A stretch of DNA of 64,000 nucleotides from Tubulanus polymorphus (Eukaryota > Nemertea > Palaeonemertea > Tubulaniformes > Tubulanidae): contig NC_134025.1 in the NCBI RefSeq assembly GCF_964204645.1, positions 8,127,001 through 8,191,000 of the forward strand. The letters are read 5' to 3'. Positions 3,701 to 49,610 of the stretch are shown here, one piece after another. Positions within the stretch are counted from its first letter, which is position 1, and each line of letters opens with the position of its first letter. The position numbers were made by a program, and so were the translations under genes. The notes beneath the pieces were generated by a model. That model searched no databases. It was not told the origin of the DNA and worked only from the letters and a program-made list of their open reading frames with translations.

Positions 3701-4070
3701 AGATACCTATAGAATTATTAAGCCGAATTGGGGGCGGGAAGTATGTTCATTAGCACTACCATTTGACCTCAGGACAAATGTAATACGGTTTCGTTGCTCT
3801 AATCATAATCTACCGATTGAAACAAGAAGATATGAAAATATCCCCCGAAATGAACGACTTTGTACCAAATGTAACCTAGGGCAAATCGGCGACGAATACC
3901 ATTTTATAATGGAGTGTACTTTTTTCGAAAGTTTAAGAAGTCGGTACATACCGCAACAAATAGTAACGTTTCCTAATATAAGAAAATTTATGAACCTTTT
4001 TACGTCAGAAAACCCAAACGTCCTAAGGAATCTTGCAGTTTTTATAAAAAAGGCACATAGCCTCATCTAG
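722..4070 (+). pseudogene. LINE ORF2: endonuclease and reverse transcriptase, broken by deletion
   Basis: The first part (722-2815) starts with an EEP/APE endonuclease domain. Recognisable pieces are SETKLDD, SGGILVAF, VYIPPETSRY and the CGDFNAYT block near 1194-1214. The reverse transcriptase follows with NNKAPGNDEILNEFLK, NPDNYRGITLLSCMSKL, ENQAGFRKNRS and FIDYQKAFDTIW. The second part (2790-4070), in another frame, resumes after the lost motif with LLYADDTLLLS, the catalytic palm motif, and ends in a CCHC-type knuckle (CTKC, then H and C, about 3860-3916). About 35-40 codons between these parts are missing and the frame shifts. A GGAAATATCC direct repeat lies at the junction. Confidence 0.88.
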
Positions 4071-6545: not shown

Positions 6546-9500
6546 ATGGGATATCCTACACAGTTCTTGATGGCGATATTTTTCTCAGGAATGATAACTT
6601 TTCATGCTAAGAAAGTTATTTTGCTGATGGAAGAAAATGGTTTTCTGAAGGTGCCATTCGTCTTTGATAACCAAACGGACAATTCCATACTTGTCGAGTT
6701 TCCTCCGCCGCTGTTCAACAGTATCAGCAACGATGCACAATTAACACCAGTTGTCGTTGATATTAATTTCAAACAGTCGTCATCTATTTGCAGAAAAAAT
6801 TTAAATCTTATTCTCGGCATCATCATGGATAACGAAACAGTAAGCCTGGAAGTTTCCAAATTCGTTAATCACGATCCAATTTGTATTTCTTTGAAGAGAT
6901 CACCTCACAACAGAATGTCTTTACAAATAATCTCCAAAGAAAAAGCCGTTTGCGTGGTTTGGGGAATGGCCGTTTTATACTACGACCGATTTGCGTGCTC
7001 GAAAGCCAGACTAGAAGAAAGTACACTAGCCGTTTCAACAGTTTCTGATGGATTATCAGGCACTTTACAATCACCATGGCATCCATATAAGCGATATCCA
7101 TCATCATTAGATATTGACTATATTTTCCCATCAAGAACCGGTTTCCATAACCAGTTTTACTGTCTACAATTTGACATTCAGGATACGAGATATTGCAAGG
7201 CGGACTCGTTATCCATTTATGGCGGATTGCAACGTGAAAACAGTAATCTAATGGGAGTTTACTGCGGTAATATTCAACCCGGAAAAATTAACGTGACCGC
7301 TGGTTTGTCGTCGGCTATGTTAATAGTTTTTAAAAGCGATATTATCGTCAGTGGTCGTGGCTTTTTGTGCGCTTATCAGATTTACGAAGGCAATAAAACA
7401 TTGTCTACCACTCTCACTAAGGACGTATCTGAATTGAGTGGCTCATTTGCGTCGAATACATCGGACCCTTTTTACTCGTATATTTGGCGGATCCATGGGA
7501 AATTTGGAAATGTTATTAATATTTTCTGGGATTTCTCGAATACAACTTCTCAAGACCTCCCGGATATCTACTTAAAGGTAACCGAAGGACCAAAAAATAA
7601 GATCATTTACGAGCATGACAAGCAACATGTGATTGGTAACATTACATCGACAGGGTATTTTGTCTCGATCGCATTAACTTTTACTTCTATGAGAAAAACA
7701 CCCCTTACTTTGACTTACGGACAGTTCCAAGCTGATTGGTGTCAGGGCATTTTTGACAATGTTTCTAGATCAGAAAGAGCGGCAGCATTTCTAAGTATGC
7801 ACATGTGTTCTAACAAAACCATCTATTCATTGAATAGAATAAGTACCCATGAAGGGGGAAAAATCCAAATTTTGTTAGATACCGTTCGTCTCACTAGTTT
7901 CAATATCAATTGTGAGCAAGGTTTTTTAGTCGATTTTGGTAATAACACATTTGCTGAACCATTTTGTGTCTCGACGCGCGATCAAATGCTCAGTACACAT
8001 AGACTTCTGCGACGAATACCATTCGTATCCTTAAAGAATAAAGTCTCCATCGTTTTGTTTTCGTATTCTGACGTCGAAGATCGTGATTTATTTGTTATTG
8101 TCGAATATAAGACGATAGAATGCCAAACACGCGACCATAGAACTATTAACTTCGAAATAATTGGCAATTTGTGGAATACAAGAAATATAACAGTCCCGTG
8201 TTACTCGGCGTTTTGGCATCCAGCGGATGATGATGATACCGATGTTAACCGAAATTATACCATCGGAACTGAATCAAACGTGATAAAACTCGATAAGTAT
8301 TATCCGGCCGATATTGATATTCAAACCCAAGGAAGCTGTTTATTTGTGATATACCTACGTAACATTTCCGATCATATTCAGGCATACTCAGATGGGAATC
8401 GTGTCAGCGTGAGCACTCCGTCCACCGTTTATATCAAACGGTTGTACTGCAGCCATCAGCAAACGACCGTGTTACTAACATTGAAAAAGCGCTGTCACAC
8501 TATCACCGAACTTAACGATGCCCAGTTTTCTCAATTCAGGACTCTATGTGGTAACATTAGACTAGCGAATCTTATATTAGGAAGTCGCTCTACGTATTAT
8601 TTTTGGGCAGTTACGAACACCGACCGTATCTGCGACGATTCCGACAAACATTTCATTATCCGATTAGAATCCGTTATTTCTTCTTACGACGTATCACTAA
8701 AAGTTGACGAATGTCCCGGATTCGACATATGCCCGTGCAACTTCGCTGCATGTTGCTATAAAAAGAACCTTATGATCATCGATGGAACATATACGAATCG
8801 TGGTGAGAGAGCCATTCGCACCACCGGGCCCGCGTTCACTGTTACCATTGAGGGTGAGCCTCATGGCCGCATTTCTAAATTTGTTATGAACTACGATATA
8901 GCCCAACAACCAACTCAGTCAATATTCACTTACCAACCCGGAAATCTGTGTCTGGATGGATTTATCTCCTGGAAAAAGTTTTGTTATTTTTTCGATGTAG
9001 GCTATGAACTAAACATCGACAACCAAGTAGTTAGAACATGGTCAGAAGCCGAAATGTTTTGTAAATCAAAAGGAGCAGAGCTTGTTAGCATACTCGATGA
9101 AGTTGAATTTGAATTCCTTCACGAAATGTGGCGCGGAGTTTGGTGGAAAAAATTTCGGCAAATTCGAAATAACGCATGGATTTCTATAGGACTTCAAAAT
9201 AAAGTTGATGTACGTATAGATGAACAAATATCAATGAATGAAGTAGTAAAGTAGTTACTATCAATTACATGACTCATCGCTTATCAAATTCATATTCAAT
9301 CATTTTAGGTTAACAAGTACACCTGGACAGACGGCAATCCATTAACCTACAGCGAATGGTACGAACCAGTAAGACACCTGTTTGATGTTTCTGAAGGGAA
9401 AGTGTACACTCCGAATAACCATGCCTACCTCAAGAAAACGAAATTCTTCGATCCTGATTTGTTAGAACCATCAAGGGATCCATCTTCACGATGCGTTGTA

Positions 9501-12500
9501 ATGCACGTCGACGTGCTTTTTTACCGAACAAATTGGATAAAGATCCCCTGTGACTACCCGATCAACAATATTGGTGTTATTTGTAAGAAACCTAATTCAC
9601 TAGCGAAAACCAGGTTCAGCCGTTCTGTGTTTTCACAAACGAAAGAAGAATACAATAATACCGCTGCTCATCAATCACTTAAAAGCGAAGAAAATATCAA
9701 AACAAGCATTTACTCGTCATTAACTCCGATGACGTCATATTGTCCTAACGGCTGGACGTACGTGAATGAAAATCTTTGTTGGATGCTCCTTTCCGGTGTC
9801 GTTGATTTACATAGTGATTATTCATACGAGAACGCTGTAAATGACTGTTATCCCTATGAACTGCAAGATGAATCTGGAATCGACCTTCTTGTACTTAACG
9901 ATATGCTGAAAATATGGATGCATAGACCAGAATATGGAGCCATCTACTTGAGGCGAACTCATGACGGACGAACAAATATTATCATCGGAAAATATTCCAG
10001 ATACCCAAAAACGTACAGAGATCAAGATACATCCATTTTGAAATTCAGACAAGTTGATTATAATATTGCCACTTTTCAAAAAGCATCAGCACGGAATGTG
10101 CTTTGTAAGACGGTACCATTTCGTCGCAAAACGTTTCCTTGCCGCAATGGCCAATTCATGTGCGGAGATGGAACATGCATTGCTGATGTTCATATTTGTG
10201 ACAGAGTTTCTAATTGCGCTGATCAGTCGGACGAAATGGATTGTACCGATATAAGTAGTAACGCTAACGGACTCTTCACTTGCAACAGTGGCCAAACAAT
10301 ATCAATATCTCGTTACTGCGACTTTCGTTCTGATTGCCTTGATCACTCGGATGAAACAGAATGTATTACGGGATCTTGTGAGAGTGGGGAACAGCCGTGT
10401 CGAAACGGACAATGCGTCTCAAACAGTAAGTGGTGTGATTTTGTCAAAGACTGCATCGATGGAACTGATGAAATTGAAAGTCACTGTCAGAGTAATTGTA
10501 AGAATGGATTTAAATGCTATTCGGGTCTGTGTATTCCACTTTGGAAATATAAAGATGGTATATCTGACTGTCCAGGTACTTACGGTGAAGATGAAGAAAT
10601 AACGTTGGCAGATATGATACGTGGGGAATTTAAGTTTTCCCTTTCATCCGGAATCGTCAACGAAAGGAGCATTGATCCATTTTGTCAGAACATTTCAGAT
10701 GTGCGGTGTGTGTTTGATCGTCCCGGTTGTATACCTAAACACAGAACTTGTATCTTTGACGACAACAATACGTGTCGAGAGATTTTCCATCTTCAATCAT
10801 GCCAGAACTTCACCTGTCCCGGAATGCTCAAATGCCCGGAAAGTTACTGCATCCCAGTGCGAAAGGTATGCGACGGAGTCTGGGATTGTAAAAACGGTTA
10901 CGATGAAATGGATTGCGAGCACGGATTATGCCCCGGTAATTTCTACTGCCCTGAAGAAAGAATATGTATCTCGCAAGAAGAAGTATGCGACGGTGTAGTG
11001 CACTGTAAAACATCATTTGACGATGAGAGATATTGCGGTAATACATGTGCGGATGGCTGCCATTGCTTTGGTTATACCGTCAACTGTGGCTTAAGTCCAC
11101 AAAACAGCACTGGTTGGATAAGCAAAAGCACACGATTCTTAAATCTTTCTTACAGCCGTTTTCCTTTAGATAACGAAACGTTTAAATCTTTTTATCGTTT
11201 GGGACACCTCGACCTCAGCCACAACAAAATATCTGTGATCGGTTCGAAAACATTTTCCGATCTTGTTAATTTACTGATTCTTGACCTCAGTAACAACGAG
11301 ATACAATTCATTGATACCGAGATTCTTAAAGGGCTTTCGAGACTTCAGTTTATTCACCTGGCGGGTAATCCACTTTCACGCTTCAAACCAATGGCGTTTC
11401 AGTACTTGTCGTCTGTCAAATCTCTTTCTATCAATGAAATGTACAGACTAAATTCGATACCTCAAAATGCTTTCTTTGGGATGATTTCATTAGAAAAATT
11501 AGACATCAGCGTAAATTCTATCAAAACCATATCCGATCACGCATTTTCTGGTCTTATCCATTTAAGGGTTCTTAATGTAACTAAAAATCAACTCGGGCCG
11601 ATATCATCAAATGTATTTTATAATTTATCCTTGGAGGAGCTCTACACCGATGCCTTCAAATTTTGTTGTATTGCTAACAAATACGAACAACACGCGCTAT
11701 CGTGTTCCCCCGATCCAGACGAGTTTTCCTCTTGTTCTGATTTATTAGATAAACTTCCTTTACAGATCGGTGTTTGGGTACTTGGTATAATGGCTGTTTT
11801 TGGAAACTTATTTGTTTTTGGATATCGGTGCCGGAGTGAGAAAAATAACGTTACCAATTATTTGATATTGACACTCTCCATATCAGACCTTTTAATGGGT
11901 GTCTACCTAATTATCATAGCTAGTATGGACACCATATATAGGGGAGAATATATTACTTACGAGGATATTTGGAGGAACAGCTTACTTTGTAAATTTGCCG
12001 GAGTCATGTCAGTTGTTTCTAGTCAGATGTCGGTATACACTATGCTGTTGGTGACAGTTGACAGGTTCGTCGCTATCGTCTTATTTCTGAAGCCACAGTT
12101 TCGGGTATCTATGAAACGTGCATTAACGTGTACATCAGTTGGCTGGATTTTCTGGATCCTAATAGCCATTATTCCTCTTACAGAACCGTATTTAGGTGGT
12201 TCGTACTTTGGCAATTATTACGGACGAAATGGAGTGTGTTTGCCATTTACAATTAGCAAGGGAGATGAGCTCGCAAAGGAGTATTCTTTGGCTCTACTCC
12301 TTTTTAATCTAGTTACATTCACGTTAATCGCATTTTGCTATATGACAATCTACCACGTGTACCGTGTTTCGGAAAATAAGATGGCGGAATGTAAAAATCG
12401 AGCCAAATCTAATGAAATGACATTGGTCAAAAAGCTTATTTTGATATTAATGACGGACTTAATATGCTGGTTCCCGATTGTGATTACTAAACTGATGGCG

Positions 12501-12722
12501 ATCAACGGAACTTTCATCAACCCGGAAGCGGCAGCCGTCATGGCGGTTGTCATTCTTCCACTGAATTCTTCGTTGAATCCATTCCTTTACACATTCTCCG
12601 CTATTCGAGCAGCGAGGTCAAACAAACAGGGCCAGAGAAAACCAAGAAGCTCAATTTCTATGGCAACGATCTCGGGATCTCAGGTGACAGTTACTACAAC
12701 AAGTCAGGGGCCAGTTGCATAG
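6546..12722 (+). CDS. Receptor A: CUB / C-type lectin / LDLa / LRR / 7TM G-protein-coupled receptor (GRL101- and relaxin-receptor-like)
   Basis: Two exons, 6546-9245 and 9309-12722, joined in phase 0 over a 63-bp intron (donor gtaaag or 3 bp earlier; acceptor cattttag). The product is about 2037 residues. Order: signal peptide 1-20; unassigned N-terminus to 145; CUB-like domain about 146-278; a weaker CUB-like domain about 280-395; unassigned Cys-containing stretch to 795; C-type lectin domain about 800-996, split by the intron, with a WTDGNP motif; a second degenerate lectin-like unit; about six LDLa repeats about 1176-1478 (CADQSDEMDC type); about seven LRRs about 1482-1678; 7TM about 1718-2001. 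The 7TM has GN in TM1, DRF in place of DRY in TM3, CWFP in TM6 and NPFLY in TM7. LDLa+LRR+rhodopsin 7TM is the type C LGR plan (relaxin receptors, snail GRL101). A plasma-membrane receptor is expected; the ligand is unknown. Confidence 0.9.
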
Positions 12723-13640
<918 letters not shown>

Positions 13641-13644
13641 TGTA

Positions 13645-14760
13645 ACCTTTGCGACAAGAAGTTTGCTGTTTTAAAAAAATTAAAGAACAATGACTTGATT
13701 TTGATATTGCTTTCCTACTATAGAATGGTTTTACTTACTTTTACTTTCGGTAGCGATGTGTGGGGCTTGAAAATCTGGTAGAAAGATTGCACTTAATGTT
13801 TTGCAAATACTCATTTGATTTGAAACGAGGGAGATGGGTTTCTATTTTTACCTCACTTTAAAAAAAGAGAGGGATAAAAAGTCATATTCCAAATTCCAAA
13901 AGTGAGGAGGGCAACTAAGTTTTAGTCCAAATTCCAAAAGTGAGGAGGGCAACTAAGTTTTTTCTTTTTAAATGCGGTGATTTTGAAATAGTATGTAATT
14001 GGAGGTATTGTAAGAACGGTTGCTTATCGAACTGTGAGCTTGGAATGGTTGCCTGTCTAATCTGGTAGGGTTCCATAGTCTAATCAATTAAATGTTATGA
14101 TGAATGTGTATCTTCTTAACCACACGTAACTGCGACCGTGAGACAAAAACAAGTATGATCAGTTTATTTTTCGGGATGCGCATCTTTATTTCTATTTTCT
14201 ACTGACGAACTTTTTTGACCCACGCGTAAAAATGAAACTGATGAGAAACAAGTTATTTTTTGTGTAGCCTTAAAGTCAAATGTCTGAAATTTTGGGGAAA
14301 ATTCAAAATGGAAAAGAGACGCTATTTCTAAAAAGGATTATGTATCGTGTTTTGTACGACTTTTTTTTATAGTAACCACCCTAGAAAACTGCGGCCAGCC
14401 TTGGACATATCTGGTTTTATCCGAACTTTCCAAACCTAGATTATCTCGGCGCTGTAGTTTAACAGAGACTGCGGGACCAATTTATACAGAAATGGCATTC
14501 AGAAATAGATATATTAAGTAAGTTTAGAACATAAAAGATTATAAAACCTGACTGGAGCCAGGAGATCTATTTTTCTAAGCTCTCCACACTTGATTGTATA
14601 TTGCTATGTAAATCTAAACGCTCGGTCGTTTCCATGATATTGCAAGGGAACGACAAGTGCAATATGAACCTCATCGATGACGAGTTTCCATTTCATTCTA
14701 GAATATAACCTATTTGTTCTACTATAGAACTTCACTTCAGGCTCTTTTTAACACGGAAAA
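13645..14760 (+). mobile_element. Decayed LINE fragment (same family as 1-4264)
   Basis: Plus-strand remnant of a LINE ORF2 3' half. Legible pieces are TFGSDVWG, ERLHLMFCKYS near 13740-13815, a KFWG stretch near 14285, and a stretch near 14385-14510 parallel to the ORF2 C-terminus of the first LINE. It is full of indels and stops. The same remnant, with the same left junction to the GH3 fragment, recurs at 25845-27130, so it was there before the unit was duplicated. Confidence 0.75.
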
Positions 14761-15189
14761 GTGCATGCCCATTATATCAAAGAAGCAAACAAACTGTTAT
14801 ACCCCCACCACCATTCGTCACCGGGTAGGCGCACATTGCACCATTGTTTATGGGTTTGTTTTTGGCTTACGTCGTTTGGATCTTGCTTTTCAAAAACTAA
14901 CCCCTTCGGATTATTCATTTCATCACGACGGGACAGCATTTGAAGTGTTGCCACCATGAATCGAATTCGTTTGCACTATATTCGTCTTTTTCTTCTGGAT
15001 AAGGATGTATTTTACGTATTTCTTCCCACGAAATTTTTTTGAAAAGATTATTTCGTTCCCACGAAAGAAATATTCATCTTTAACCGTGTCACCTCCGGGG
15101 CTCCGTAGAAAGCAACAAAGAGAGTGTCTAATAAATGGGCCAGTGTCTCACTTATTTATGAAGGGGTTGAAATATAGACTGAGCGATTT
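14761..15189. other. Unassigned, part of the duplicated unit
   Basis: Short overlapping open frames with no coding signature. The stretch is homologous to about 27150-27370 upstream of copy C. Nothing identifiable. Confidence 0.4.
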
Positions 15190-16436
15190 ATAGGTCTCTA
15201 ATGATGGCAAAGGCCTTGATATTTTTTCAGTATGAATGTTACTCGTGATACATTAGGCATAATTGTTTTTTTTTCGGTACAGATAAGATACTCACGATGA
15301 CAATAAAAATGTTAGCTATTACTCCCGCAATCAAAAATAAAGCCACAACTAATCGCTTTTATTACCGCGTTCAGTTCATTATTTACACTGAACTCTCTAA
15401 TGAAAGCTTTCAGCCTGAAATTTGGTAATTGAAAGAATACCCGAGGTAGAAATGGGTGGAAGTTATTTCATTCTATCTCCGTTATACCGATGAATGTTAA
15501 TTCTGTCGCATCAAAATTCCGTCTAATTTGATCATAAAATAGTCGCACTCAGACCAGGAGAGCCCACTTTAAACACATTAAGAAGATTACAATCAAGTAT
15601 ATTTGCTAATCTATATTTCATTCATTAAACATTAAAAAAAACATGAAACATTAAACATAAAAATGTTTCATAAATAGGTTCTATTTACATTGCTTGAGCT
15701 AAATAATGTCCGGTGATTTCCCACCATATTCTTCATAAACAAATCTAAAAATTTGCCGCGGTTCCAATGAGGATTAATTTTAGAGATTTCTATGATAACA
15801 CACTGTTTAGGCGGTCTGTGATTGATGCGCGTGGCGCTGCATGCATATTTGATAAATGTTGTCATTCGCCTTGTCAAATCATTCATAATCGCATCGTTTT
15901 GATAATGTTTATAAAGTTGTAAGTTGTAAGTTATAAGTCGACCGAACGTACGGGAATGGAACGTCACGACGTAAGTAAAGGTTTCATTCTAATCAATCGT
16001 TGGCTATTACGTAGGCCAAATTCTTTTTCATTCCGAATTTCACTTCTTTGTGAATTTTTCCATTATCACTTCCTGAAGATTGATTTATTGAATTATAGAT
16101 TTGATTGAATTATTGAAATGATAAGTATATGAAGGGAAAAGACTCACAGCATTTGAATTGAAACGTCGCACATCTCTGATAGTTTTTCTTTTATTGTGGG
16201 GTTTTCTTCAATTCAGTGGGGTCAAAAATATGAAAATGAACACCTTGGTCATATCATTGGCACAGATGCCACTGACTTCAGCTTTAATCTCTTTGCCATT
16301 TATCATCTTCCAGATAAATTAAACAACGTTAGAACGAAATCCAGTCGCAACGCACAAAAAGCAAAGACATCTGATCATTATTTTGGCATTCTTCGTTTAT
16401 AATAATACTTCGCTGCTAAACGTACGGTGCACCGAA
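15190..16436 (+). other. Duplicated 5' flank of receptor B
   Basis: Matches 5265-6545 and 27370-28909. It probably holds the promoter and 5' UTR. Translation should start at 16437, where the ATGGGATATCCTA context matches receptors A and C; in-frame codons further up lack an ATG. Confidence 0.55.
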
Positions 16437-19400
16437 ATGGGATATCCTATAAAGTTTTTGATGGTGATATTTTTCACAGGAATTTTGAGTTTTCACGCGA
16501 CAAAAGTTATTTTGCGGAAGGAAGAAAATGGTTTTCTGAAGGTGCCATTCATCCTAAATAACCAAACGGACAATTCCATACTAATTGTCGAGTTTCCTCC
16601 GCCGCTGTTCCACAGTATCATCAACGACGTACAATTAACGCCGGTTGTCGTTGATATTAATTTCAAACAGTCGTCATCTGTTTGCAGAGCGAATTTAAAT
16701 CTTATTCTCGCCATCATCATAGATAACGAATCACTAAACATGGAAGTATCCAAATTCGTGAATGACGAGCCGATTTGTATTTCTTTGAAGAAATCACTTC
16801 ACAACAACATATCTTTTCAAATAATCTCCAAAGAAAAAGCCGTTTGCGTGGTTTGGGGAATGGCCATTTTATACTACGACCGATTTGCGTGCTCAAAAGC
16901 CAGACTAGAAGAAAGTACACTAGCCGTTTCAACAGTTTCTGATGGGTTATCAGGCACTTTACAATCACCATGGCATCCATATAAGCGATATCCATCATCA
17001 TTAGATATCGACTATATCTTCCCATCAAGAACCGGATTCCATAACCAGTTTTACTGTCTACAATTTGACATTCAGGATACGAGATATTGCAAGGCGGACT
17101 CGTTATCCATTTATGGCGGATTGCAACGTGAAAACGGTAATCTAATGGGAGTTTACTGCGGTAATATTCAACCCGGAAAAATTAACGTGACCGCTGGTTT
17201 GTCGTCGGCTATGTTAATAGTTTTTAAAAGCGATATTATCGTCAGTGGTCGTGGCTTTTTGTGCGCTTATCAGATTCACGAAGGCAATAAAACATTGTCT
17301 ACCACTCTCACTACGGACGTATCTGAATTGAGTGGCTCATTTGCGTCTAATACATCGGACCCTTTCTATTCGTACGTTTGGCGGATCCATGGGAAATTTG
17401 GAAATGTTATCAATATTTTCTGGGATTTCTCGAATACGTCTTCTCAAGACCTCCAAGATATCTACTTAAAGGTAACCGAAGGACCAAAAAATAAGATCAT
17501 TTACGAGCATGACAAGCAACATGTGATTGGTAACATAACATCGATAGGGTATTTTGTTTCGGTCGCATTAACTTTTACGTCTATGAGAAAAGCACCCCTC
17601 ACTTTGACTTACAGACAGTTCCAAGATTGGTGTCAGGGCATTTTCGCCAATGTTTCTAGATCAGAAATAGCAGCTGCATATTTAAGTATGCACACGTGTT
17701 CTAACAAAACAATCTATTCATTGAATAGAATAAGTACCCATGAAGGGGGAAAAATCCAAATTTTGTTAGATACCGTTCGTCTCACTAGTTTCAATATCAA
17801 TTGTGAGCGAGGTTTTTTAGTCGATTATGGTAATAGCTCATTTGCTGAACCATTTTGTGTCATGACGCGCGATCCCAGTAGTACACCCGAACATAAACGA
17901 CGAATACCATTCGTATCCGCAAATAACAAAGTCTCCATCGTCTTGTTTTCGTATTCTGACGTCGAAGACCGCGATTTAGCGGTAATTGTCGAGTATAAAA
18001 TGCTAGAATGCCAAACACGCCATGATAGAACACGTAACATCGAAATGATTGGTAATTTGTGGAATACAAGGGATATAACAGTTCCGTGTTACTCGGCCTT
18101 TTGGCATCTAGTGGATGATGATGATATCGATGTAAACGGAAATCATACCATCGGCACTGAATCAAACGTTATAAAACTCGATAAATATTATCCGGCCGAT
18201 ATTGATATTCAAACCCAAGGAAGCTGTTTATTTGTGATATACCTACGTAACATTACCGGTCATATTCAGGCATACTCAGATGGGAATCGTGTCAGCGTGA
18301 GCACTCCATCCACCGTTTATATCAAACGATTGTACTGTAGCCATCAGCAAACAACCGTGTTATTAACATTGAAAAAGCGCTGTCACACTATCACCGAACT
18401 TCGTGATTCGCAGATTTCTCAATTCAGGACTCTATGTGGTAACATTAGACTAGCGAATTTTATATTAGGAAGTCGCTCTCCGTATTATTTTCGGGCAGTT
18501 ACAAATATCAAACGTATCTGCGAAGATTCCGACAAATATTTCATTATCCGATTAGATTCCGTAATTTCTTCTGATGGCGTATCACTGAAAGTAGACGAGT
18601 GTCTCGGAGACAAAATATGTCCGTGTTACTTCGATATATGTTGCTCTAAAAAGAACATTATGCTCATTGATGGGATATATAGAGATCGCGGAGAAAGAAC
18701 CATTCGCACCACCGGGCCCGCGTTCAGTGTCATCATTGAGGGTGAGCCTCATGACAGCGTTTCTAAATTTGTCATGAACTACGATATAGCCCAACAACCA
18801 ACCCAGTCAATATCCATTCTTCAACACGGAAATTTTTGTCCTGATGGATTTGTGTTCTGGAATAGGTTTTGTTATTTTTTCGATGTAAGCTCTAAAATCG
18901 ATAGCAAAGCGGTTAGAACATGGTCAGAAGCCGAAATGTTTTGCAATTCAAAAGGAGCAGAGCTTGTAAGCATACTCGATGAAGTTGAATTTGAATTCCT
19001 TCACGAAATGTGGCGCGGAGTTTGGTGGAAAAAATTTCTGCATATTCAAAGAGACGGATGGATTTTTATAGGACTTCAAAACAAAGTTGATGTACGTATA
19101 AATCAACATTTATTAATGAATGAAGTAGTTGAATAGTAATAATGATGATAATGATGATAATGATAATGATAATATAAAATAGACTCAGATTAAAGATGTT
19201 GCTTGAATTCATATTTTATCATTTTAGGTTAACAAGTACACGTGGACTGATGGCAATCCATTGACTTATAGCGAATGGTATGAACCATTAAGACGCATGT
19301 TTCATTTGTCTGAAGAAAAAAAGTTCGCTCCTATTAACCATGCCTACCTCAAAAAAACGAAATTCTTCGATCCTGATTTGTTACAACCATCAAGGGATCC

Positions 19401-22400
19401 ATCGTCACGATGTGTTGTAATGCACGTCGACGTGCTTTTTTACCGGACAAATTGGATAAAGATCCCCTGTGACTACCCGATCTACAATTTCGGTTTTGTT
19501 TGTAAGAAACCTCATTCACCAGCAAAAACCAGGTGGAGCCGTTCTGTGTTTTCAAAAACGAAAGGAGAATACAATAATACCGCTGCTCATCAAACACTTA
19601 AAAGCGATGAGAATAACAAAAAAAGTATTTACTCGTCATTAACTCCAATGACGTCATATTGTCCTAACGGCTGGACATACGTGAATGAAAATGTTTGTTG
19701 GATGCTCATTTCAGGTCTCGGTAATTTAGATAGTAAGTATTCATACGAGAATGCTGTAAATGACTGTTATCCATATGCGCTGCAAGATGAATCTGACATC
19801 GACCCTCATGTACTTAACGATATGCTGAAAATATGGATGCATAGACCAGAATATGGAACCATTTACTTGAGGCAAAATCATGACGGACGAAAAAAGATTA
19901 TCGTCGGAAAGTATTCGAGATACCCAAAAACGTACAGAGATCAAGATACATCCATTTCGAAATTCAGACAAGTTGATTATCATATCGCCATTCATGAAAA
20001 AGCATTAGCACGGAATGTGCTTTGTAAGTCTGTACCATTTCGTCGCAGAACGTTTTCATGCAGCAATGGCCAATTCATGTGCGGAGATGGAACATGTATT
20101 GCCGACGTTCACGTTTGTGACAGAGTTTCCAATTGCGCTGATCAGTCGGACGAAATGGATTGCACCGATATAAGTAGTAACGCTAACGGACTCTTCACTT
20201 GCAACAATGGCCAAACAATATCAATATCTCGTTACTGCGACTTTCGCTCTGATTGCCTTGATCACTCGGATGAAACAAGATGTATTACGGGATCTTGTGA
20301 GAGTGGGGAACAGCCGTGTCGAAACGGACAATGCGTCTCAAACAGTAAGTGGTGTGATTTTGTCAAAGACTGCATCGATGGAACTGATGAAATTGAAAGC
20401 CACTGTCAGAGTGATTGTAAGAATGGATTTAAATGCTATTCGGGTCTGTGTATTCCACTTTGGAAATATAAAGATGGTATATCTGACTGTCCAGGTACTT
20501 ACGGTGAAGATGAAGATCTAACGTTGGCAGATATGATACGCGGGACATTTGAGTTTACCCTATCATCAGGAATTGTCACCCAAAAGAGCACTGATCCATT
20601 TTGTAAGAAAATTTCAGATGTCCGGTGTGTGTTTGATCGCCCCAGTTGTATACCTAGACACAGAACGTGTATCTTGGACGACAACAATACGTGTCGAGAG
20701 ATGTTCCATCTCCAATCATGCCAGAATTTCACCTGTCCCGGAATGCTGAAATGCCCTGAAAGTTACTGCATCCCAGTGCGAAAGGTATGCGACGGAGTCT
20801 GGGATTGTAAAAACGGTTACGATGAAATGGATTGCGAGCACGGATTATGCCCCGGTAATTTCTACTGCCCTGAAGAAAGAATATGTATCTCGCAAGAAGA
20901 AGTATGCGACGGTGTAGTGCACTGTAAAAAATCATTTGACGATGAGAGATATTGCGGTAATACATGTGCGGATGGCTGCCATTGCTTTGGTTATGCTGTC
21001 AACTGTGGCTCAAGTCCACAAAACAGCACTGGTTGGATTAGCAAAAGCACACGATTCTTAAATCTTTCTTACAGCCGTATTACTTTAGATAACGAAACGT
21101 TTAAATCTTTTTATCGTTTGGGACACCTCGCCCTCAGCCACAACAGAATATCTGAGATCGGTTCGAAAACATTTTCCGATCTTGTTAATTTACTGACTCT
21201 TGACCTCAGTAACAACGAGATACAATTCATTGATACCGAGATTCTTGAAGGACTTTCAAGACTTCAGTTTATTCACCTGGCGGGTAATCCACTTTCACGC
21301 CTCAAACCAATGGCGTTTCAGTACTTGTCGTCGGTCCAATCATTTTCTATCAATGAAATGTACAGACTAAATTCGATACCTCAAAATGCTTTCTTTGGGA
21401 TGATTTCATTAGAAAAATTAGACATAAGCGTAAATTCTATCAAAACTATATCCGATCACGCATTTTCTGGTCTTATACATTTAAGGGTTCTCAATGTAAC
21501 TAAAAATCAACTCGAGCCGATATCACCAAACGTATTTCATAATTTATCCTTGGAGGAGCTCTACACCGATGCCTTCAAATTTTGTTGCATTGCAAACAAA
21601 TACGAACAACACGCGCAATCGTGTTCCCCCGATCCAGACGAGTTTTCCTCTTGTTCTGATTTATTAGATAAACTTCCTTTACAGGTCGGTGTTTGGGTAC
21701 TTGGTGTAATGGCTGTTTTTGGAAATTTATTTGTCATTGGATATCGGTGCCGGGGAGAGAAAAATAACGTTACCAATTATTTGGTATTGACACTGGCAAT
21801 ATCAGACTTTTTTATGGGTGTCTACCTAATTATCATTGCTAGTATGGACACCATATATAGGGGAGAATATATTACTTACGAGGATATTTGGAGGAACAGC
21901 TTACTTTGTAAATTTGCTGGAGTCCTGTCAGTTGTTTCTAGTCAGATGTCGGTATACACTATGCTGTTGGTGACAGTTGACAGGTTCATCGCTATCGTCT
22001 TCTTTCTGAAGCCACAGTTTCGGGTATCCATGAAACGTGCATTTACGTGTACATCAGTTGGCTGGATTATCTGGATCCTAATAGCCATTATTCCTCTTAC
22101 AGAACCGTATTTAGGTGGTTCGTACTTTGGCAATTATTACGGACGAAATGGAGTGTGTTTGCCATTTACAATTAGCAAGGGAGATGAGCTCGCAAAGGAG
22201 TATTCTTTGGCGCTACTCCTTTTTAATCTAGTTACATTTATGTTAATTGCATTTTGTTATATAGCAATCTACCACGTGTACCGCGTTTCGGAAAATAAGA
22301 TGGCGGAATGTAAAAGCCGCACCAAATCTAACGAAATGACTTTGGTCAAAAAGCTTATTTTGATATTAATGACGGACTTAATATGCTGGTTCCCGATTGT

Positions 22401-22641
22401 GATTACTAAACTGATGGCGATTAACGGAACTTTCATTAACCCGGAAGCGGCAGCCGTCATGGCGGTTGTCATTCTTCCATTTAATTCTTCGTTGAATCCA
22501 TTCCTTTACACATTCTCCGCTATTCGAGCAGCGAGGTTAAACAAACAGGTGCAGAGAAAATCAAGAAGCTCAATTTCTATGGCAACGATCTCGGGATCTC
22601 AGGTGACAGTTACTACTACAAGTCAGGGGCCAGTTGCATAG
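16437..22641 (+). CDS. Receptor B: CUB / C-type lectin / LDLa / LRR / 7TM G-protein-coupled receptor
   Basis: Intact paralogue of receptor A. Exons are 16437 to about 19127 and 19228-22641, with a 100-bp intron whose donor is weak (gtagttg or gttgaat) and whose acceptor is attttag. Exon 2 has exactly the length of A's exon 2 (3414 nt); the product is about 2034 residues. Domain order is as in A: signal peptide, CUB-like units, C-type lectin domain crossing the intron (WTDGNP kept), degenerate lectin-like unit, LDLa repeats, LRRs, 7TM with DRF, CWFP and NPFLY. The C-tail is Ser/Thr-rich and ends SQGPVA as in A. Differences from A cluster in the first 130 residues and in the stretch before the lectin domain, while the CUB and several LDLa blocks are almost identical even at silent sites. 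It is presumably a second functional receptor with altered ligand preference (inference). Confidence 0.9.
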
Positions 22642-25082: not shown

Positions 25083-25845
25083 CTTCCGTTTATGTGAAAT
25101 GAAGGAAGCTGGTGGAAAATTCCAACGACCTTGACAATCTCACCAGTTCTGTAATGATATTAACCACCATCAGTAGTGACAATCAGTTCGTACATTAAAT
25201 GTAAATTAATGAGAAATTTTCTCCTTCACTTACCTGAAAATGAAGAAAATGATAACAGAATATTTTGCAGCTAATAAAATATGAATGAAAAAACCCTAGA
25301 TTTTGAAAACAACGTCTCGGATGCGTTATATAATCTGGGATGGTAGTTTTACAAAATATTTGCTCGTTTGTAAGAAAAACCCTTTCCGATGTCAGGCTAT
25401 ATTACCTCGTGTAAAAGTAACGTTGAGCTTTGTAAGTGCACTGAATCAAATGGCATAAATTCGAAGACTACCCCAAACGGGGCTGCGGAACATCCGTACA
25501 TGTAAGAATACATATGCACATGACCAAAGTAGTCCTAACGTATATTTTCTATTTCCTGTTCCAAAGGACCCGAACCATGTATCTGGATGACCTGCAGCGT
25601 TGGCCATATCCTCGGGAAAATAGAAGTAAAGTCTCCCAGTAAGACATTTCGTAGTTCTACAGCCCGGGCTGGATTCGGAGGTAGACCGTTTTCGAGTTGT
25701 TTCTTTGCTTCCGATGAAATCTGCTCCGAAGCGGCGTAATGTAGTTTATAAAATCCATGTCTCTCCGTACGATAGGAACGACTGTGAATGCAACATAATA
25801 CAACAGGCAAAATGTATATGTAACCATGCGAAACGAAGTTTGATG
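25083..25845 (-). pseudogene. GH3-domain gene remnant B (exons 2 and 3)
   Basis: Minus-strand remnant. Exon 3 (about 25083-25235) still shows the equivalent of YELIVTTDGG but has an insertion of about 20 bases near 25195. Exon 2 remains at about 25474-25800, with SSEAKKQLENG, PARAVELRN, LLGDFTSIFPRIWPTLQVIQ and GSGPLEQE legible. The same block of about 125 codons is deleted as in remnant A. The 5' part of exon 2 is gone: the gene breaks off at the same point as remnant A, where LINE-derived sequence begins. Confidence 0.82.
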
Positions 25846-28909: not shown

Positions 28910-31900
28910 ATGGGATATCCTATAAAGTTTTTGATGGTGATAGCTTTCTCAGGAATTTTGACTTTTCACGCTACAAAAGGTATTTTGCGGAAGGAAGAAA
29001 ATGGTTTTCTGAAGGTGCCATTCGTCCTTGATAACCAAACGGACAATTCCATACTTATCGAGTTTCCTCCGCCGCTGTTCCACAGTATCAGCAACGACGT
29101 ACAATTAACGCCGGTTGTGGTTGATATTAATTTCAAACAGTCGTCATCTGTTTGCAGAGCGAATTTAAATCTAATTCTCGCCATCATCATAGATAACGAA
29201 TCACTAAGCATGGAAGTATCCAAATTCGTGAATCACGACCCAATTTGTATTTGTTTCAAGGAATCACTTCTCAAGAACATATCTTTTCAAATCATCTCCA
29301 AAGAAAAAGCCGTTTGCGTGGTTTAGGGAATGGCCGTTTTATACTACGACCGATTTGCGTGCTCGAAAGCCAGACTAGAAGAAAGTACACTAGCCGTTTC
29401 AACAGTTTCTGATGGGTTATCAGGCACTTTACAATCACCATGGCATCTATATAAACGATATCCATCATCATTAGATATTGATTATATCTTCCCATCAAGA
29501 ACCGGATTCCATAACCAGTTTTACTGTCTACAATTTGACATTCAGGATACGAGATATTGCAAGGCGGACTCGTTATCCGTTTATGGCGGATGGCAACGTG
29601 AAAACGGTAATCTAATGGGAGTTTACTGCGGTAATATTCAACCCGGAAAAATTAACGTGACCGCTGGTTTGTCGTCGGCTATGTTAATAGTTTTTAAAAG
29701 CGATATCATCGTCAGTGGTCGTGGCTTTTTGTGCGCTTAACAGATTTACGAAGGCAATAAAACATTGTCTACCACTCTCACTAAGGACGTATCTGAATTG
29801 AGTGGCTCATTTGCGTCGAATACATCGGACCCTTTTTATTCGTACGTTTGGCGGATCCATGGGAAATTTGGAAATGTTATCAATATTTTCTGGAATTTCT
29901 CGAATACAACTTCTCAAGACCTCCCGGATATCTACTTAAAGGTAACCGAAGAACCAAAAAATAAGATCATTTACGAGCAGGACAAGCAACATGTGATTGG
30001 TAACATAACATCGATAGGGTATTTTGTCTCGGTCGCACTAACTTTTACGTCTATGAGAAAAGCACCTCTCACTTTGACTTACAGACAGTTCCAAGGTGAT
30101 TGGTGTCAGGGCATTTTTGACAATGTTTCTAGATCAGATATAGTGGCAGCATATTTAAGTATGCACACGTGTTCTAACAAAACAATCTATTCATTGAATA
30201 GAATAAGTACCCATGAAGGGGGAAAAATCCAAATTTTGTTAGATACCGTTCGTCTCACTAGTTTCAATATCAATTGTGAGCAAGGTTTTTTAGTCGATTT
30301 TGGTAATAACACATTTGCTGAACCATTTTGTGTCATGACGCGCGATCCCAGTAGTACACCCGAACATAAACGACGAATACCATTCGTATCCGCAAATAAC
30401 AAAGTCTCCATCGTCTTGTTTTCGTATTCTGACGTCGAAGACCGCGATTTAACGGTAATTGTCGAGTATAATATGCTAGAATGCCAAACACGTCACAATA
30501 GAACACGTAACATCGAAATAATTGGCAGTGTGTGGAGTATACTAGATATAACAGTTCCGTGTTACTCGGCGTTTTGGCATCTAGCGGATGATGATGATAC
30601 CGATGTAAACGGAAATCATACCAACGGAACTGAATCAAACGTAATAAAAATTGATAGATATCATCCGGCCGATATTGATATTCAAACCCAAGGAAGCGGT
30701 TTATTTGTGATATACCTACGTAACATTTTCGATCATATTCAGGCATACTCAGATGGGAATCGTGTCAGCGTGAACACTCCGTCCACCGTTTATATCAAAC
30801 GATTGTACTGCAGCCATCAGCAAACAACCGTGTTACTAACATTGAAAAGGCGCTGCCACACTTTCACCGATCTTCGCGATTCTCAGATTTATCAACTTTG
30901 GACTCTATGTGGTAACATTAGACTAGCGAATTTTGTATTAGGAAGTCGCTTTCCCTATTATTTTTGGGCAATTGCAAACACTAAACGTTTCTGTGAAGAT
31001 ACCGACAAACATTTCATTATCAGATTAGATTCCGTTATTTCTTCTGATGGCGTATCACTGAAAGTTGACGAATGTGTCGGAGCCAAAAAATGTCCGTGTT
31101 ACTTCCCTGCATGTTGCTCTGAAATGAACATTATGCTCATTGATGAGATATATAGAGATCGCGGAGAAAGAGCCATTCGCACCACCGGGCCCACGTTCCG
31201 TGGCATCGTTGAGGGTGAGCCTCATGACAGCGTTTCTAAATTTGTCATGAACTACGATATAGCGAAACAACCAACTCAGCCAATATCCATTCTTCAACAC
31301 GGAAATTTTTGTCCTGATGGATTTGTGTTCTGGAATAGGTTTTGTTATTTTTTCGATGTAAGCCCTGGACCTAAAATCGATAGCAAAGCGGTTAGAACAT
31401 GGTCAGAAGCCGAAATGTATTGTAATTTAAAAGGAGCAGAGCTTGTAAGCATACTCGATGAAGTTGAATTTGAATTCCTTCACGAAATGTGGCGCGGAGT
31501 TTGGTGGAAAAAATTTCTGCAAATTCGAAATAACCCATGGATTTTTCTAGGACTTCAAAACAAAGTTGATGTACGTATAGATCAACAATTATTAATGAAT
31601 GAAGTAGTAAAGTAGTAACGTAATAATAGTAATAATATGAAATAGACTCAGATTTAAGATGTTGCTTGAATTTTAATATTTCATCATTTTAGGTTAACAA
31701 GTACACGTGGACTGATGGCAATCCATTGACTTATAGCGAATGGTATGAACCATTAAGACGCGCGGTCGATAATTCTGAAGAAATAAAGTTCGCTCCCATT
31801 AACCATGCCTACCTCAAAAAAACGATATTCTTCGATCCTGATTTTTTAGAACCATCAAGGGATTCATCGTCACGATGTGTTGTATTGCACGTCGACGTGC

Positions 31901-34900
31901 TTTTTTACCGGACAAATTGGATAAAGATCCCCTGTGACTACCCGAACAACGATTTCGGTGTTGTTTGTAAGAAACCTCATTCCCCAACTAAAACCAGGTG
32001 GAGCCGTTCTGTGTTTTCAAAAACGAAAGAAGAATACAATAATACCGCTGCTCATCAATCACTTAAAAGCGACGAAAATGACAAAAAAAGCATTTACTCG
32101 TCATTAACTCCGATGACATCATATTGTCCTAACGGCTGGACATACGTGAATGAAAATCTTTGTTGGATGCTCATTTCAGGTCTCGGTAATTTAGATAGTA
32201 AGTATTCATACGAGAATGCTGTATATGACTGTTATCCATATGCACTGCAAGATGAATCTGGCATCGACATTCATGTACTTAACGATATGCTGAAAATATG
32301 GATGCATAGGCCAGAATATGGAGCCATTTACTTGAGGCAAACTCACGACGGACGAAAAAAGATTATCGTCGGAAAGTATTCCAGATACCCAAAAACGTAC
32401 AGAGATCAAGAAACATCCATTTTGAAATTCAGACAAGTCGATTATAATATCGCCACTTTTCAAAAAGCATCAGCACGGAATGTGCTTTGTAAGACGGTAC
32501 CATTTCGTCGCAAAACGTTTCCTTGCAGCAATGGCCAATTCATGTGCAGAGATGGAACATGTATTGCCGATGTTCACATTTGTGACAGAGTTTCTAATTG
32601 CGCTGATCAGTCGGACGAAATGGATTGTCCTGATATCGGTAATAACGCTAACGAACTCTTCACTTGCAACAATGGCCAAACAATATCAATATCTCGTTAC
32701 TGCGACTTTCGTTCTGATTGCCTTGATCACTCGGATGAAACAGAATGTATTACGGGATCGTGTGAGAGTGGGGAACAGCCGTGTCGAAACGGACAATGCG
32801 TCTCAAACAGTAAGTGGTGCGATTTTGTGAAAGACTGCATCGATGGAACTGATGAAATTGAAAGCCACTGTCAGAGTAATTGTAAGAATGGATTTAAATG
32901 CTATTCGGGTCTGTGTATTCCACTTTGGAAATATAAAGATGGTATATCTGACTGTTCAGGTACTTACGGTGAAGATGAAGAACTAACGTTAGCAGATATG
33001 ATACGCGGGGATTTTCAGTTTACCCTATCAGCTGGAATTGTCGTCGGAAAGAGCACTGATCCATTTTGCCAGAAAAAGTCAGATGTCCGGTGTGTGTTTG
33101 ATCGTCCCGGTTGTATACCTAGACACAGAACTTGTATCTTGGACGACAACAATACGTGTCGAGAGATTTTCCATCTCCAATCATGCCAGTGTTACGATTT
33201 AGCTATTTTGGCTAAATAGTAATGCTGTTTGTAAAGTATTTTTATGTTACTTTAGGGCAGAACATCTGCTGTTTTTATAACATTTAGCGTAGATCGACAT
33301 TCAAGACCCTTCAAACTGGCATCTTTAGGCTTCATTGTTCCAATTCTTAGATAGTATCCATTAGGCTTATAATTATATAAACATTGGTTGAAACCATGGT
33401 CTTGAGTGGCGATCTCTATACTTGTAGAGATTTATAGAGTATTTTAGTTATATTATTGTATATAGAATGTTTGGGAGTTTATTTAGTAATTAACTAATGG
33501 AAAGGGATTGAGACTTGGGGTGATATTCTGGGGATAAAAAGGGTTAGTTCAGTAGATTCGGGGAGAACGAGACCAAGCAAGAGAGGATAACGAGAACGAG
33601 AGAACGGGAACTGGAGAACTAGGCGGGAGTGAGAGCTAAGTCAAGTCCAGAGAAAAGCTAGTCAGGAGTACCGAGAGATCAGATCGGGATCGTACGGGAG
33701 AATAGCCGAGGGATTGGATCTGGATCAGACGGGGTGACTATAGGATTTACGCTGGATTTTAACGACACATTATAGAAGAAATTATATATCGGAGGATGGA
33801 ATAAATATACTCATATTATACTAGATAAAGGCAAACTACTGAGTTAAGTTAAGTATACTTTTTATATCCCGGATTCTAGGAGCTAGGGCAATCGTCTACA
33901 AATAGGTTATCAGTAGCAAGAGATACCGATAGGTAAGAAAAATATACTAAACCGTTTCACTCAGAGTTATCGAAAACGACGACCACTTAGATCGAACGAA
34001 CACTTAAAATCGTTTCACCAGAACTTCACCTGTCCCGGAATGCTCAAATGCCCTGAAAGTTACTGCATCCCAGTGCGAAAGGTATGCGACGGAGTCTGGG
34101 ATTGTAAACACGGCTACGATGAAATGGATAGCGAGTACGGATTATGCACCGGTAATTTCTACTGCCCTGAAGAAAGAATATGTATTTCGCAAGAAGAAGT
34201 ATGTGACGGTGTAGTGCACTGCAAAACATGATTTGACGATGAGAGATATTGCGGTAATACATGTGCGGATGGCTGCCATTGCTTTAGTTATACTGTCAAC
34301 TGTGGCTTAAGTCCACAAAACAGCTCTGGTTGGATTAGCAAAAACACACGATTCTTAAATCTTTCTTACAGTCGTATTACTTTAGATAACGAAACGTTTA
34401 AATCTTTCTATCGTTTGGGACACCTCGACCTCAGCCACAACACAATATCTGTGATCGGTTCGAAAACATTTTCCGATCTTGTTAATTTACTGACTCTCGA
34501 CCTCAGGAACAGCGAGATACAATTCATTGATACCGAGATTCTTGAAGGACTTTCAAGACTTCAGTTTATTCACCTGGTGGGTAATCCACTTTCACGCCTC
34601 AAACCAATGGCGATTCAGTACTTGTCGTCTGTCCAATCTCTTTCTATCAATGAAATGTACAGACTAAATTCGATACCTCAAAATGCTTTCTTTGGGATGA
34701 TTTCATTAGAAAAATTAGACATAAGCGTAAATTCTATCAAAACCATATCCGATCGTGCATTTTCTGGTCTTATCCATTTAAGGGTTCTTAATGTAACTAA
34801 AAATCAACTCGAGCCGATATCACCAGACGTGTTTTATAATTTATCCTTGGAGGAGCTCTACACCGATGCCTTCAAATTTTGTTGCATTGCAAACAAATAC

Positions 34901-35844
34901 GAACAACACGCGCAATCGTGTTCCCCCGATCCAGACGAGTTTTCCTCTTGTTCTGATTTATTAGATAATCTTCCTTTACAGGTCGTTGTTTGGGTACTTG
35001 GTATAATGGCTGTTTTTGGAAATTTATTTGTCATTGGATATCGGTGCCGGGGAGAGAAAAATAACGTTACAATTATTTGGTATTGACACTGGCAATATCA
35101 GACTTTTTAATGGGTGTCTACCTAATTATCATTGCTAGTATGGACAGCATATATAGGGGAGAATATATTACTTACGAGGATATTTGGAGGAACAGCTTAC
35201 TTTGTAAATTTGCTGGAGTCATGTCAGTTGTTTCTAGTCAGATGTCGGTATACACTATGCTGTTGGTGACAGTTGACAGGTTCGTCGCTATCGTCTTCTT
35301 TCTGAAGCCACAGTTTCGGGTATCTATGAAACGTGCATTAACGAGTACATCAGTTGGCTGGATTATCTGGATCCTAATAGCCATTATTCCTCTCATAGAA
35401 CCCTATTTAGGTGGTTCGTACTTTGGCAATAATTACGGACGAAATGGGGTGTGTTTGCCATTTACAATTAGCAGGGGAGATGAGCTCGCAAAGGAGTATT
35501 CTTTGGCGCTACTCCTTTTTAATCTAGTTACATTTATGTTAATTGCATTTTGTTATATAGCAATCTACCACGTGTACCGCGTTTCGGAAAATAAGATGGC
35601 GGAATGTAAAAGCCGCACCAAATCTAACAAAATGACTTTGGTCAAAAAGCTTATTTTGATATTAATGACGGACTTAATATGCTGGTTCCCGATTGTGATT
35701 ACTAAACTGATGGCGATTAACGGAACTTTCATTAGCCCGGAAGTGGCAGCCGTCATGGCGGTTGTCATTCTTCCACTGAATTCTTCGTTGAATCCATTCC
35801 TTTACATATTCTTCGCTATTCGAGCAGCAAGGGATCTCAGGTGA
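28910..35844 (+). pseudogene. Receptor copy C pseudogene (CUB / lectin / LDLa / LRR / 7TM)
   Basis: Third copy of the receptor, exon 1 from 28910 to about 31606 and exon 2 from 31693. Lesions visible against A and B: TAG at 29324-29326 in place of a Trp codon; TAA at 29738-29740 in place of Tyr; an 828-bp solo LTR inside exon 2 (33190-34017); TGA at 34229-34231 in the last LDLa repeat; loss of one C near 35070 in TM1-TM2, shifting the frame; a 58-nt deletion near 35830; and a LINE in the C-tail region from about 35848. Long stretches between lesions remain open (29765-31615, 31726-33189), so decay is recent. Domain order was as in A. A truncated secreted product is possible but not supported. 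Confidence 0.95.
33190..34017. mobile_element. Solo LTR (828 bp) with 4-bp target duplication
   Basis: The insertion begins TGTTACGATTT and ends AAATCGTTTCA, i.e. TG...CA ends within an imperfect inverted repeat, as in LTRs. CCAG is duplicated at 33186-33189 and 34018-34021; removing one copy restores the receptor A/B sequence across the site. Inside are a TATA-like GATAAAAAGGG at about 33534, a purine-rich GAGA/GAAC region, and AATAAA near 33800. No internal retroelement genes or second LTR are present. A 4-5 bp duplication suits a Ty3/gypsy-type parent; the family is not determined. Confidence 0.9.
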
Positions 35845-35847
35845 CAG

Positions 35848-42698: not shown

Positions 42699-49610
<6,912 letters not shown>

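What the first reader, a model, noticed from the sequence alone, without database searches (positions are those of the whole stretch)
6546..22641. Giant receptors joining CUB, C-type lectin, LDLa, LRR and rhodopsin 7TM modules
Seen: two intact genes encode about 2035 residues each, with CUB-like units and a C-type lectin domain placed in front of an LDLa-LRR-7TM body, and only one short intron, which cuts the lectin domain. Known: type C LGRs (relaxin receptors, snail GRL101) have LDLa, LRR and 7TM but not, to my knowledge as a standard form, CUB plus lectin modules. Inference: a lineage-specific receptor class combining carbohydrate or complement-type recognition with direct G-protein signalling.
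Basis: partly seen in the sequence, partly recalled or inferred. Interest (0 to 1): 0.72.

Follow-up and report, generated by a model that had tools for sequence, protein, structure and literature searches.

The report
Giant lectin-bearing G-protein-coupled receptor family
The window holds two intact and one broken copy of an unusually large cell-surface receptor that joins complement-type and lectin-type modules to a hormone-receptor-like body, and the same animal genome carries over two hundred related loci, many in tandem arrays, which looks like a large repertoire for recognising something outside the cell.

Summary
Genes A (6546-12722, 2025 aa) and B (16437-22641, 2022 aa) each have one phase-0 intron, of 99 and 136 bp rather than 63, which cuts a C-type lectin domain. 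A third copy (28910-35856) is broken. Order: hydrophobic start, one confirmed CUB, about 500 aa without a profile match, lectin domain 1, a divergent lectin domain 2, six LDLa by Pfam, LRRs, class A 7TM closest among solved structures to RXFP1. Several CUB units are not supported by profiles. Two diverged paralogues on another contig (D, E) share the order and the intron position. Searches of the animal's own 268-Mb genome found 231 further loci of the hinge-TM segment, 191 of them in open frames of at least 1000 aa, 196 on three contigs; 84 of 90 N-terminal hits lie 2.6-4.1 kb upstream of a TM hit. The lectin-LDLa-LRR-7TM form is published for Biomphalaria sudanica (ten complete and two partial genes in a schistosome-resistance region, PMC12297450); CUB is not mentioned there. 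New here, as far as my searches show: the CUB, the second lectin domain, and the size of the family. Most likely role: recognition of external ligands coupled directly to G proteins (inferred). Neither expression nor ligand is known.

The parts
6546..9209 (+). gene A exon 1 (residues 1-888): hydrophobic start, CUB, unassigned region, first half of lectin domain 1
7053..7376 (+). gene A CUB domain (residues 170-277)
   Evidence: Pfam CUB 4.2e-12; PDB neuropilin/PCPE CUBs; profile of A, B, D, E hits CUB chains
8946..9209 (+). gene A lectin domain 1, exon 1 half (residues 801-888)
   Evidence: Lectin_C 3.8e-9 when spliced
9210..9308 (+). gene A intron, 99 bp, GT-AG, phase 0, inside lectin domain 1
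9309..9593 (+). gene A lectin domain 1, exon 2 half (residues 889-983)
9735..10121 (+). gene A divergent second lectin-like domain (residues 1031-1159)
   Evidence: profile-profile with lectin domain 1: probability 93.9, score 48.9, 0 of 100 shuffles as high; no Pfam match on its own; not significant from A and B alone
10140..11036 (+). gene A LDLa array (6 by Pfam, 7 by eye; residues 1166-1464)
11046..11714 (+). gene A leucine-rich repeats (about residues 1468-1690)
11805..12590 (+). gene A class A 7TM domain; the coding sequence ends at 12722
   Evidence: 7tm_1 7.3e-32; nearest solved 7TM is RXFP1
16437..19091 (+). gene B exon 1 (residues 1-885)
19092..19227 (+). gene B intron, 136 bp
19228..22641 (+). 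gene B exon 2 with stop (lectin half to 7TM)
28910..35856 (+). copy C, broken: two in-frame stops in exon 1, 828-bp insertion (33190-34017) in exon 2, frame change near 35071, altered C-terminal tail

Best explanation
A and B are members of a large family of type C LGR-like receptors in an animal, probably a protostome. The ectodomain carries, from the N-terminus, a CUB domain, a long cysteine-bearing region without a profile match, two C-type lectin-fold domains (the second divergent and fast-changing), an LDLa array and LRRs, on a class A 7TM. Most likely mechanism: the outer CUB/lectin half binds a protein or glycoconjugate ligand outside the cell; binding shifts the LDLa-LRR body, which triggers the 7TM much as the LDLa module of RXFP1 is proposed to act on its own 7TM, and a G protein signals. 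The tandem arrays would supply a repertoire of related specificities. Shown: domain order, intron position, overall purifying selection in the A/B and D/E pairs, family size as a lower bound. Inferred: ligand binding by CUB/lectin, activation mode, G-protein coupling, immune or other external-recognition role.
For: Pfam on A and B, D and E, G. A-B dN/dS 0.43 over the whole protein; D-E 0.41. Same intron position and phase in A, B, D, E. 7TM part alone: RXFP1 152 bits, glycoprotein hormone receptors 114-119, LGR4 65-67. Family: 35 listed matches besides A-E for exon 2, from the 41 best-scored of 814 candidates; 231 distinct hinge-TM loci from two capped searches, 191 with open frame of at least 1000 aa; 90 N-terminal hits (capped, 382 candidates), 84 with a TM hit 2.6-4.1 kb downstream. 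Lectin domain 2 is the least conserved of five exon-2 segments in the three close pairs examined: A-B 0.82, D-E 0.45, F-G 0.52. Published precedent: lectin-bearing GRL101 cluster in the B. sudanica SudRes2 resistance region (PMC12297450). RXFP1's LDLa is described as essential for activation (PMC4837482, start of abstract in the search listing).
Against: No RNA, protein or ligand evidence. None of the named segments of A-B or D-E has dN/dS above 1; of 45 overlapping 60-codon windows in A-B, five have dN above dS (91-150, 226-285, 451-510, 1486-1545, 1801-1860), on few changes and untested. The replacement/silent difference between residues 1-1160 and 1161-2025 in A-B gives p = 0.098. Variation is not confined to lectin domain 2: in A-B, residues 650-790 (109/140) and 1-160 (128/160) are no better conserved than it (102/126), and in D-E 525-650 is about as variable (0.47). 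Canonical lectin calcium/sugar residues are incomplete. Array members F and G lack the acidic residue of the DRY-type motif, so coupling may differ or be lost there. In SudRes2 the top associated variants lie in a neighbouring non-GRL101 gene, so the immune link of the published relatives is indirect. CUB passes Pfam in 5 of 6 members examined (A, B, D, E, G; not F). The 231 loci were not each checked for every module, and 26 of 90 N-terminal matches contain a stop, some probably because the query runs into an intron.
Confidence: 0.6

Rival explanations
1. Hormone receptor: as proposed for GRL101 by others, the ligand is an insulin/IGF/relaxin-like peptide bound by LRR and LDLa; the CUB and lectin domains only tether or shape the ectodomain.
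For: 7TM nearest to RXFP1; PMC8286064 argues that GRL101 could be an IGF receptor (passages).
Against: That paper finds one GRL101 orthologue per ambulacrarian species studied, against 231 loci besides A-E here. In the three close pairs the LDLa and 7TM are better conserved than lectin domain 2.
Confidence: 0.18
2. Chemosensory or gamete/self recognition: the arrays are an olfactory-like or allorecognition repertoire rather than an immune one.
For: Tandem arrays with a median neighbour spacing of 11.3 kb over 169 pairs closer than 50 kb resemble chemoreceptor clusters (general knowledge); a GRL101-like transcript is up in starfish sensory tentacles (PMC6267866, passages).
Against: No expression data. 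The one published set of lectin-bearing relatives that I found lies in a parasite-resistance region (PMC12297450).
Confidence: 0.3
3. Exon 1 and exon 2 are separate genes that happen to be adjacent.
For: In A, exon 1 runs on in frame for 42 bp past the donor to a stop, so an unspliced transcript would make a product without a membrane part (sequence).
Against: The lectin domain is cut between them and is restored by splicing; GT-AG at the same position in A, B, D, E; 84 of 90 N-terminal hits genome-wide sit upstream of a TM hit.
Confidence: 0.04
4. Mostly dead or repeat-amplified copies: the family has spread by tandem duplication without function.
For: Copy C is broken; 40 of 231 loci have open frames under 1000 aa; 26 of 90 N-terminal matches contain a stop; C6 19.82-20.11 Mb repeats with an offset near 232.3 kb, which could also be an assembly artefact.
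Against: 191 of 231 loci keep frames of at least 1000 aa; dN/dS 0.41-0.43 in both intact pairs tested.
Confidence: 0.08

Closest known systems
SudRes2 GRL101-like receptors of Biomphalaria sudanica (PMC12297450; abstract, passages and section 9 seen)
   Same: N-terminal C-type lectin, LDL repeats, LRR, class A 7TM; clustered paralogues
   Different: ten complete and two partial genes in the region and six more elsewhere with GRL101, lectin and LDL domains, against 231 loci besides A-E here; the main text has no mention of CUB (0 occurrences); a second lectin domain is not described in what I read.
GRL101 of Lymnaea stagnalis (type C2 LGR; as described in PMC8286064 and PMC4079206, passages)
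   Same: many LDLa repeats, LRRs, class A 7TM
   Different: twelve LDLa and six LRR in the description read; no CUB or lectin in the passages read
Relaxin receptors RXFP1/2 (type C1 LGR)
   Same: nearest solved 7TM; LDLa-LRR-7TM order
   Different: one LDLa module in RXFP1 (abstract in listing); no CUB or lectin (recalled)
Adhesion GPCRs with CUB or lectin domains (ADGRG6; amphioxus set in PMC2246102, passages)
   Same: CUB, Lectin_C or LDLa in front of a 7TM
   Different: another 7TM class (7tm_2) with a GPS; A and B match 7tm_1 and not 7tm_2

Membership tests
Type C LGR | LDLa module(s) + LRR + class A 7TM, in this order | tested here: met
   A, B; D, E; F, G
Type C LGR | 7TM closer to RXFP than to type A or B LGRs | tested here: met
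   gene A only: 152 bits against 119 and 67; solved structures only, not a tree
Type C2 (GRL101) | multiple LDLa repeats | tested here: met
   six stretches in A and B, five in D and E, six in F and G
Type C2 (GRL101) | phylogenetic grouping with GRL101 rather than RXFP/LGR3/LGR4 | not testable with these tools
   no GRL101 sequence at hand
Lectin-bearing GRL101 of B. sudanica | N-terminal C-type lectin domain and clustered paralogues | tested here: met
   orthology not testable
CUB domain family | Pfam CUB above curated cut-off | tested here: met
   A 46.8, B 45.8, D 36.3, E 39.8, G 24.4 bits (cut-off 21.4); F 14.3, not met
Calcium-dependent sugar-binding C-type lectins | EPN or QPD motif together with WND (motifs recalled) | tested here: not met
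   A EPS, B QPS, D and E QPD, F and G QPI; WIK, WIK, WFK, WFK, WVR, WVR in place of WND
Adhesion GPCR | 7tm_2 with GPS/GAIN | tested here: not met
   neither among the families listed for A and B at E up to 10

The most novel reading that the evidence does not exclude
This animal has made a repertoire of more than two hundred CUB/lectin receptors that are themselves GPCRs: a large, tandemly duplicating recognition system in which variation sits mainly in the outer half, a divergent second lectin domain included, and signalling is direct through G proteins, functionally comparable to an innate immune or allorecognition repertoire.
Probability: 0.4. Interest if true: 0.88.

Novelty: new variant of a known kind. 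Interest (0 to 1): 0.7.

Why it matters
Recognition by lectins and CUB proteins is usually coupled to proteases or kinase pathways, not to a G protein in the same chain (general knowledge). A family of hundreds of such receptors, similar in form to genes inside a snail schistosome-resistance region, would point to a GPCR-based branch of invertebrate recognition. It offers testable candidates for the binding surface (the outer half, lectin domain 2 first) and for how part of the orphan GRL101 group works.

Tried and rejected
Several CUB units in A: not supported for residues 22-645 (the best of these, 520-655, scored 13.8 with 1 of 50 shuffles as high and probability 0.4). Residues 645-800 stay marginal (score 19.4, probability 2.4, best of 50 shuffles 18.8; 1 of 40 as high), although they sit where array members F and G carry an SPNYPG stretch read by eye.

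Lectin domain 2 from A and B alone: not significant (37 of 100 shuffles as high). Six members made it significant; both alignments come from the same proteins, and the junction of G was guessed by eye.

Positive selection: not shown.

Relatives in viral contigs: no match to the patterns used. Rfam and tRNA scans of the window: none. COX1, to name the animal: no match in the assembly. The small contig C77 was read for its first 9000 of 15,646 bases only and looked non-mitochondrial.

NCBIfam hits to bacterial LRR proteins and a nitrate reductase subunit: far below their cut-offs, taken as chance.

One search held one mistyped coordinate that came from no call; one search left it out, and repeats the count against all 150 rows. 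Only one search is used.
Full report
GENE MODELS. Gene A has exon 1 at 6546-9209, a 99-bp GT-AG intron at 9210-9308, and exon 2 at 9309-12722, giving 2025 aa. Gene B has 16437-19091, a 136-bp intron at 19092-19227, and 19228-22641, giving 2022 aa. Both ATGs are the first in their open frame. A and B share 1782 of 2021 aligned residues (88%), with dN/dS 0.43. The third copy at 28910-35856 has two in-frame stops in exon 1, an 828-bp insertion in exon 2, a frame change and an altered tail.

DOMAINS. Pfam gives one CUB (46.8 and 45.8 bits), Lectin_C split by the intron, six LDLa, LRRs and 7tm_1. The CUB is seen by sequence in PDB (neuropilin, PCPE) and with a four-member profile, whose hits include cubilin, C1r and ADGRG6. 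No other CUB was confirmed in A: Pfam on five segments, and profile-profile scores within the shuffles except at 645-800, which is marginal. Residues 1031-1159 form a divergent second lectin domain: not detectable from A and B alone, clear with six members (probability 93.9, score 48.9, best of 100 shuffles 20.7). Lectin domain 1 lacks a complete calcium/sugar motif set in each of the six members aligned (motifs recalled).

KINSHIP OF THE BODY. The 7TM of A alone matches solved RXFP1 at 152 bits, glycoprotein hormone receptors at 114-119, an unnamed family 1 receptor (8w1z) at 92 and LGR4 at 65-67. Multiple LDLa repeats are the mark of GRL101 (type C2) in PMC4079206 (passages). No GRL101 sequence was at hand, so the placement inside type C is not tested.

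THE REST OF THE GENOME. The window is G000:C1:8127001-8191000 of a 267.8-Mb assembly in 77 contigs. Multi-copy mir-2 (12 matches, 7 above cut-off; the control set rang in 1 of 14 genomes, below cut-off) points to a protostome (mir-2 distribution recalled). No COX1 was found, so the animal is unnamed. A search with exon 1 found A, B, C and three other matches: D and E on contig C7, and one weak match on C6 with four stops. D (1862 aa) and E (1857 aa) have the same order of modules and the same phase-0 junction (GLHDKYQ|INDFQW and GLHDKDQ|INDFQW, against GLQNKVD|VNKYTW), plus one more intron inside the lectin domain. CUB passes in both. A-D identity is 51% in the 7TM, 48% in LDLa, 33-36% in CUB, lectin 1 and LRR, and 19-27% elsewhere in the ectodomain.

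A search with exon 2 listed 43 matches, scored from the best 41 of 814 candidates. Thirty-five of the rows are neither A-C nor D-E, at 35-38% identity, each covering the query from residue 4 or before to 1100 or beyond of 1137 (lectin domain 1 to 7TM); 2 of the 35 contain a stop. Two short hinge-TM queries, each capped at 150 of 344 and 347 candidates, gave 231 distinct loci: C12 83, C6 57, C9 56, C8 10, C10 9, C5 5, C22 4, C4 3, C11 2, C32 1, C3 1; 191 lie in open frames of at least 1000 aa. Stops inside the segment: 0 of 150 and 2 of 150 rows. A-E are not among the 231. An N-terminal query (CUB-like stretch and start of lectin 1 of F) gave 90 scored of 382 candidates; 84 of the 90 have one of the 150 TM rows at 2.6-4.1 kb downstream. 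Twenty-six of the 90 contain a stop. One fetched C12 member (G) has a CUB at 24.4 bits and a lectin domain at 37.4 bits with a junction guessed by eye; one C9 member (F) has a CUB trace below cut-off and weak Lectin_C traces. I did not check every locus for every module.

WHERE IT VARIES. Lectin domain 2 has the lowest identity of five exon-2 segments in each of the three close pairs I could compare: A-B 0.82, D-E 0.45, F-G 0.52. The stretch 984-1160 has the highest dN/dS of eight segments in A-B (0.73) and D-E (0.66), still below 1. Parts of exon 1 vary about as much: A-B 650-790 109/140 and 1-160 128/160, D-E 525-650 0.47. Five of 45 short windows in A-B have dN above dS, untested. Relaxed constraint would look the same.

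MECHANISM. Shown: anatomy, conservation, tandem amplification. Inferred: outer modules bind, LDLa/LRR relay, 7TM signals. The relay is modelled on RXFP1, whose LDLa is described as essential for activation (PMC4837482, abstract in listing). F and G carry RQRY/RHRF where A, B, D and E have VDRF/VDRV, so array members may couple differently.

LITERATURE. PMC12297450 (abstract, passages and section 9 seen) describes ten complete and two partial GRL101-like genes in SudRes2 of B. sudanica, with lectin, LDL, LRR and 7TM, and calls the N-terminal lectin domain unique to them; 'CUB' occurs 0 times in its main text. The strongest variants there lie in a neighbouring Zn-RING-IAP gene. Its preprint PMC11722531 (passages) agrees. 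Searches for GRL101 with CUB and C-type lectin (passages of both papers seen, where the terms are unrelated), GRL101 with 'CUB domain' (the same paper), GRL101-like with lectin, and wider domain searches showed me no paper describing a CUB-lectin-LDLa-LRR-rhodopsin receptor. Most of the wider hits were judged from listings only, and the library is open-access only. PMC2246102 (passages) reports CUB, Lectin_C and LDLa in amphioxus adhesion GPCRs, a different 7TM class.

VERDICT. It is a new variant of a known kind (type C LGR / GRL101-like, lectin-bearing), and the genome-wide family is the more surprising part.

Noticed in passing
window 39571-40842 (-) and 25538-26038 (-): GH3-domain gene or remnants (Pfam GH3 2.1e-33 and 6.9e-7); similar sequence lies beside receptor copies, so it may have travelled with the tandem duplication.
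   Followed up: partly
window 44281-44934 (-) and 58534-59091 (+): Two secretin-family 7TM (7tm_2) exons or remnants, 1.4e-17 and 1.6e-16, in opposite orientation.
   Followed up: no
window 722-4067 (+): Non-LTR-type retrotransposon with endonuclease and reverse transcriptase domains, split over two frames.
   Followed up: no
window 54159-55371: Three tandem copies of a 404-bp unit, 97% matches.
   Followed up: no
L028 62-5076 and L029 105-8552 (contigs C66 and C65): Tandem arrays with one tRNA gene per unit of about 353 bp and 335 bp (16 of the 20 small-contig loci scanned).
   Followed up: no
G000:C6:19.82-20.11 Mb: Receptor array repeated with an offset near 232.3 kb and the same scores; a segmental duplication or an assembly error (offsets read from the coordinates).
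   Followed up: no
G000:C9:2930630 and 2934302; 2851982 and 2855657: N-terminal and TM hits both lie in open frames of 1568 and 1608 aa, so the intron may be lost or readable in these copies.
   Followed up: no
L037 and L038 (array members F and G): The acidic residue of the DRY-type motif is replaced (RQRY, RHRF), while window genes have VDRF.
   Followed up: partly
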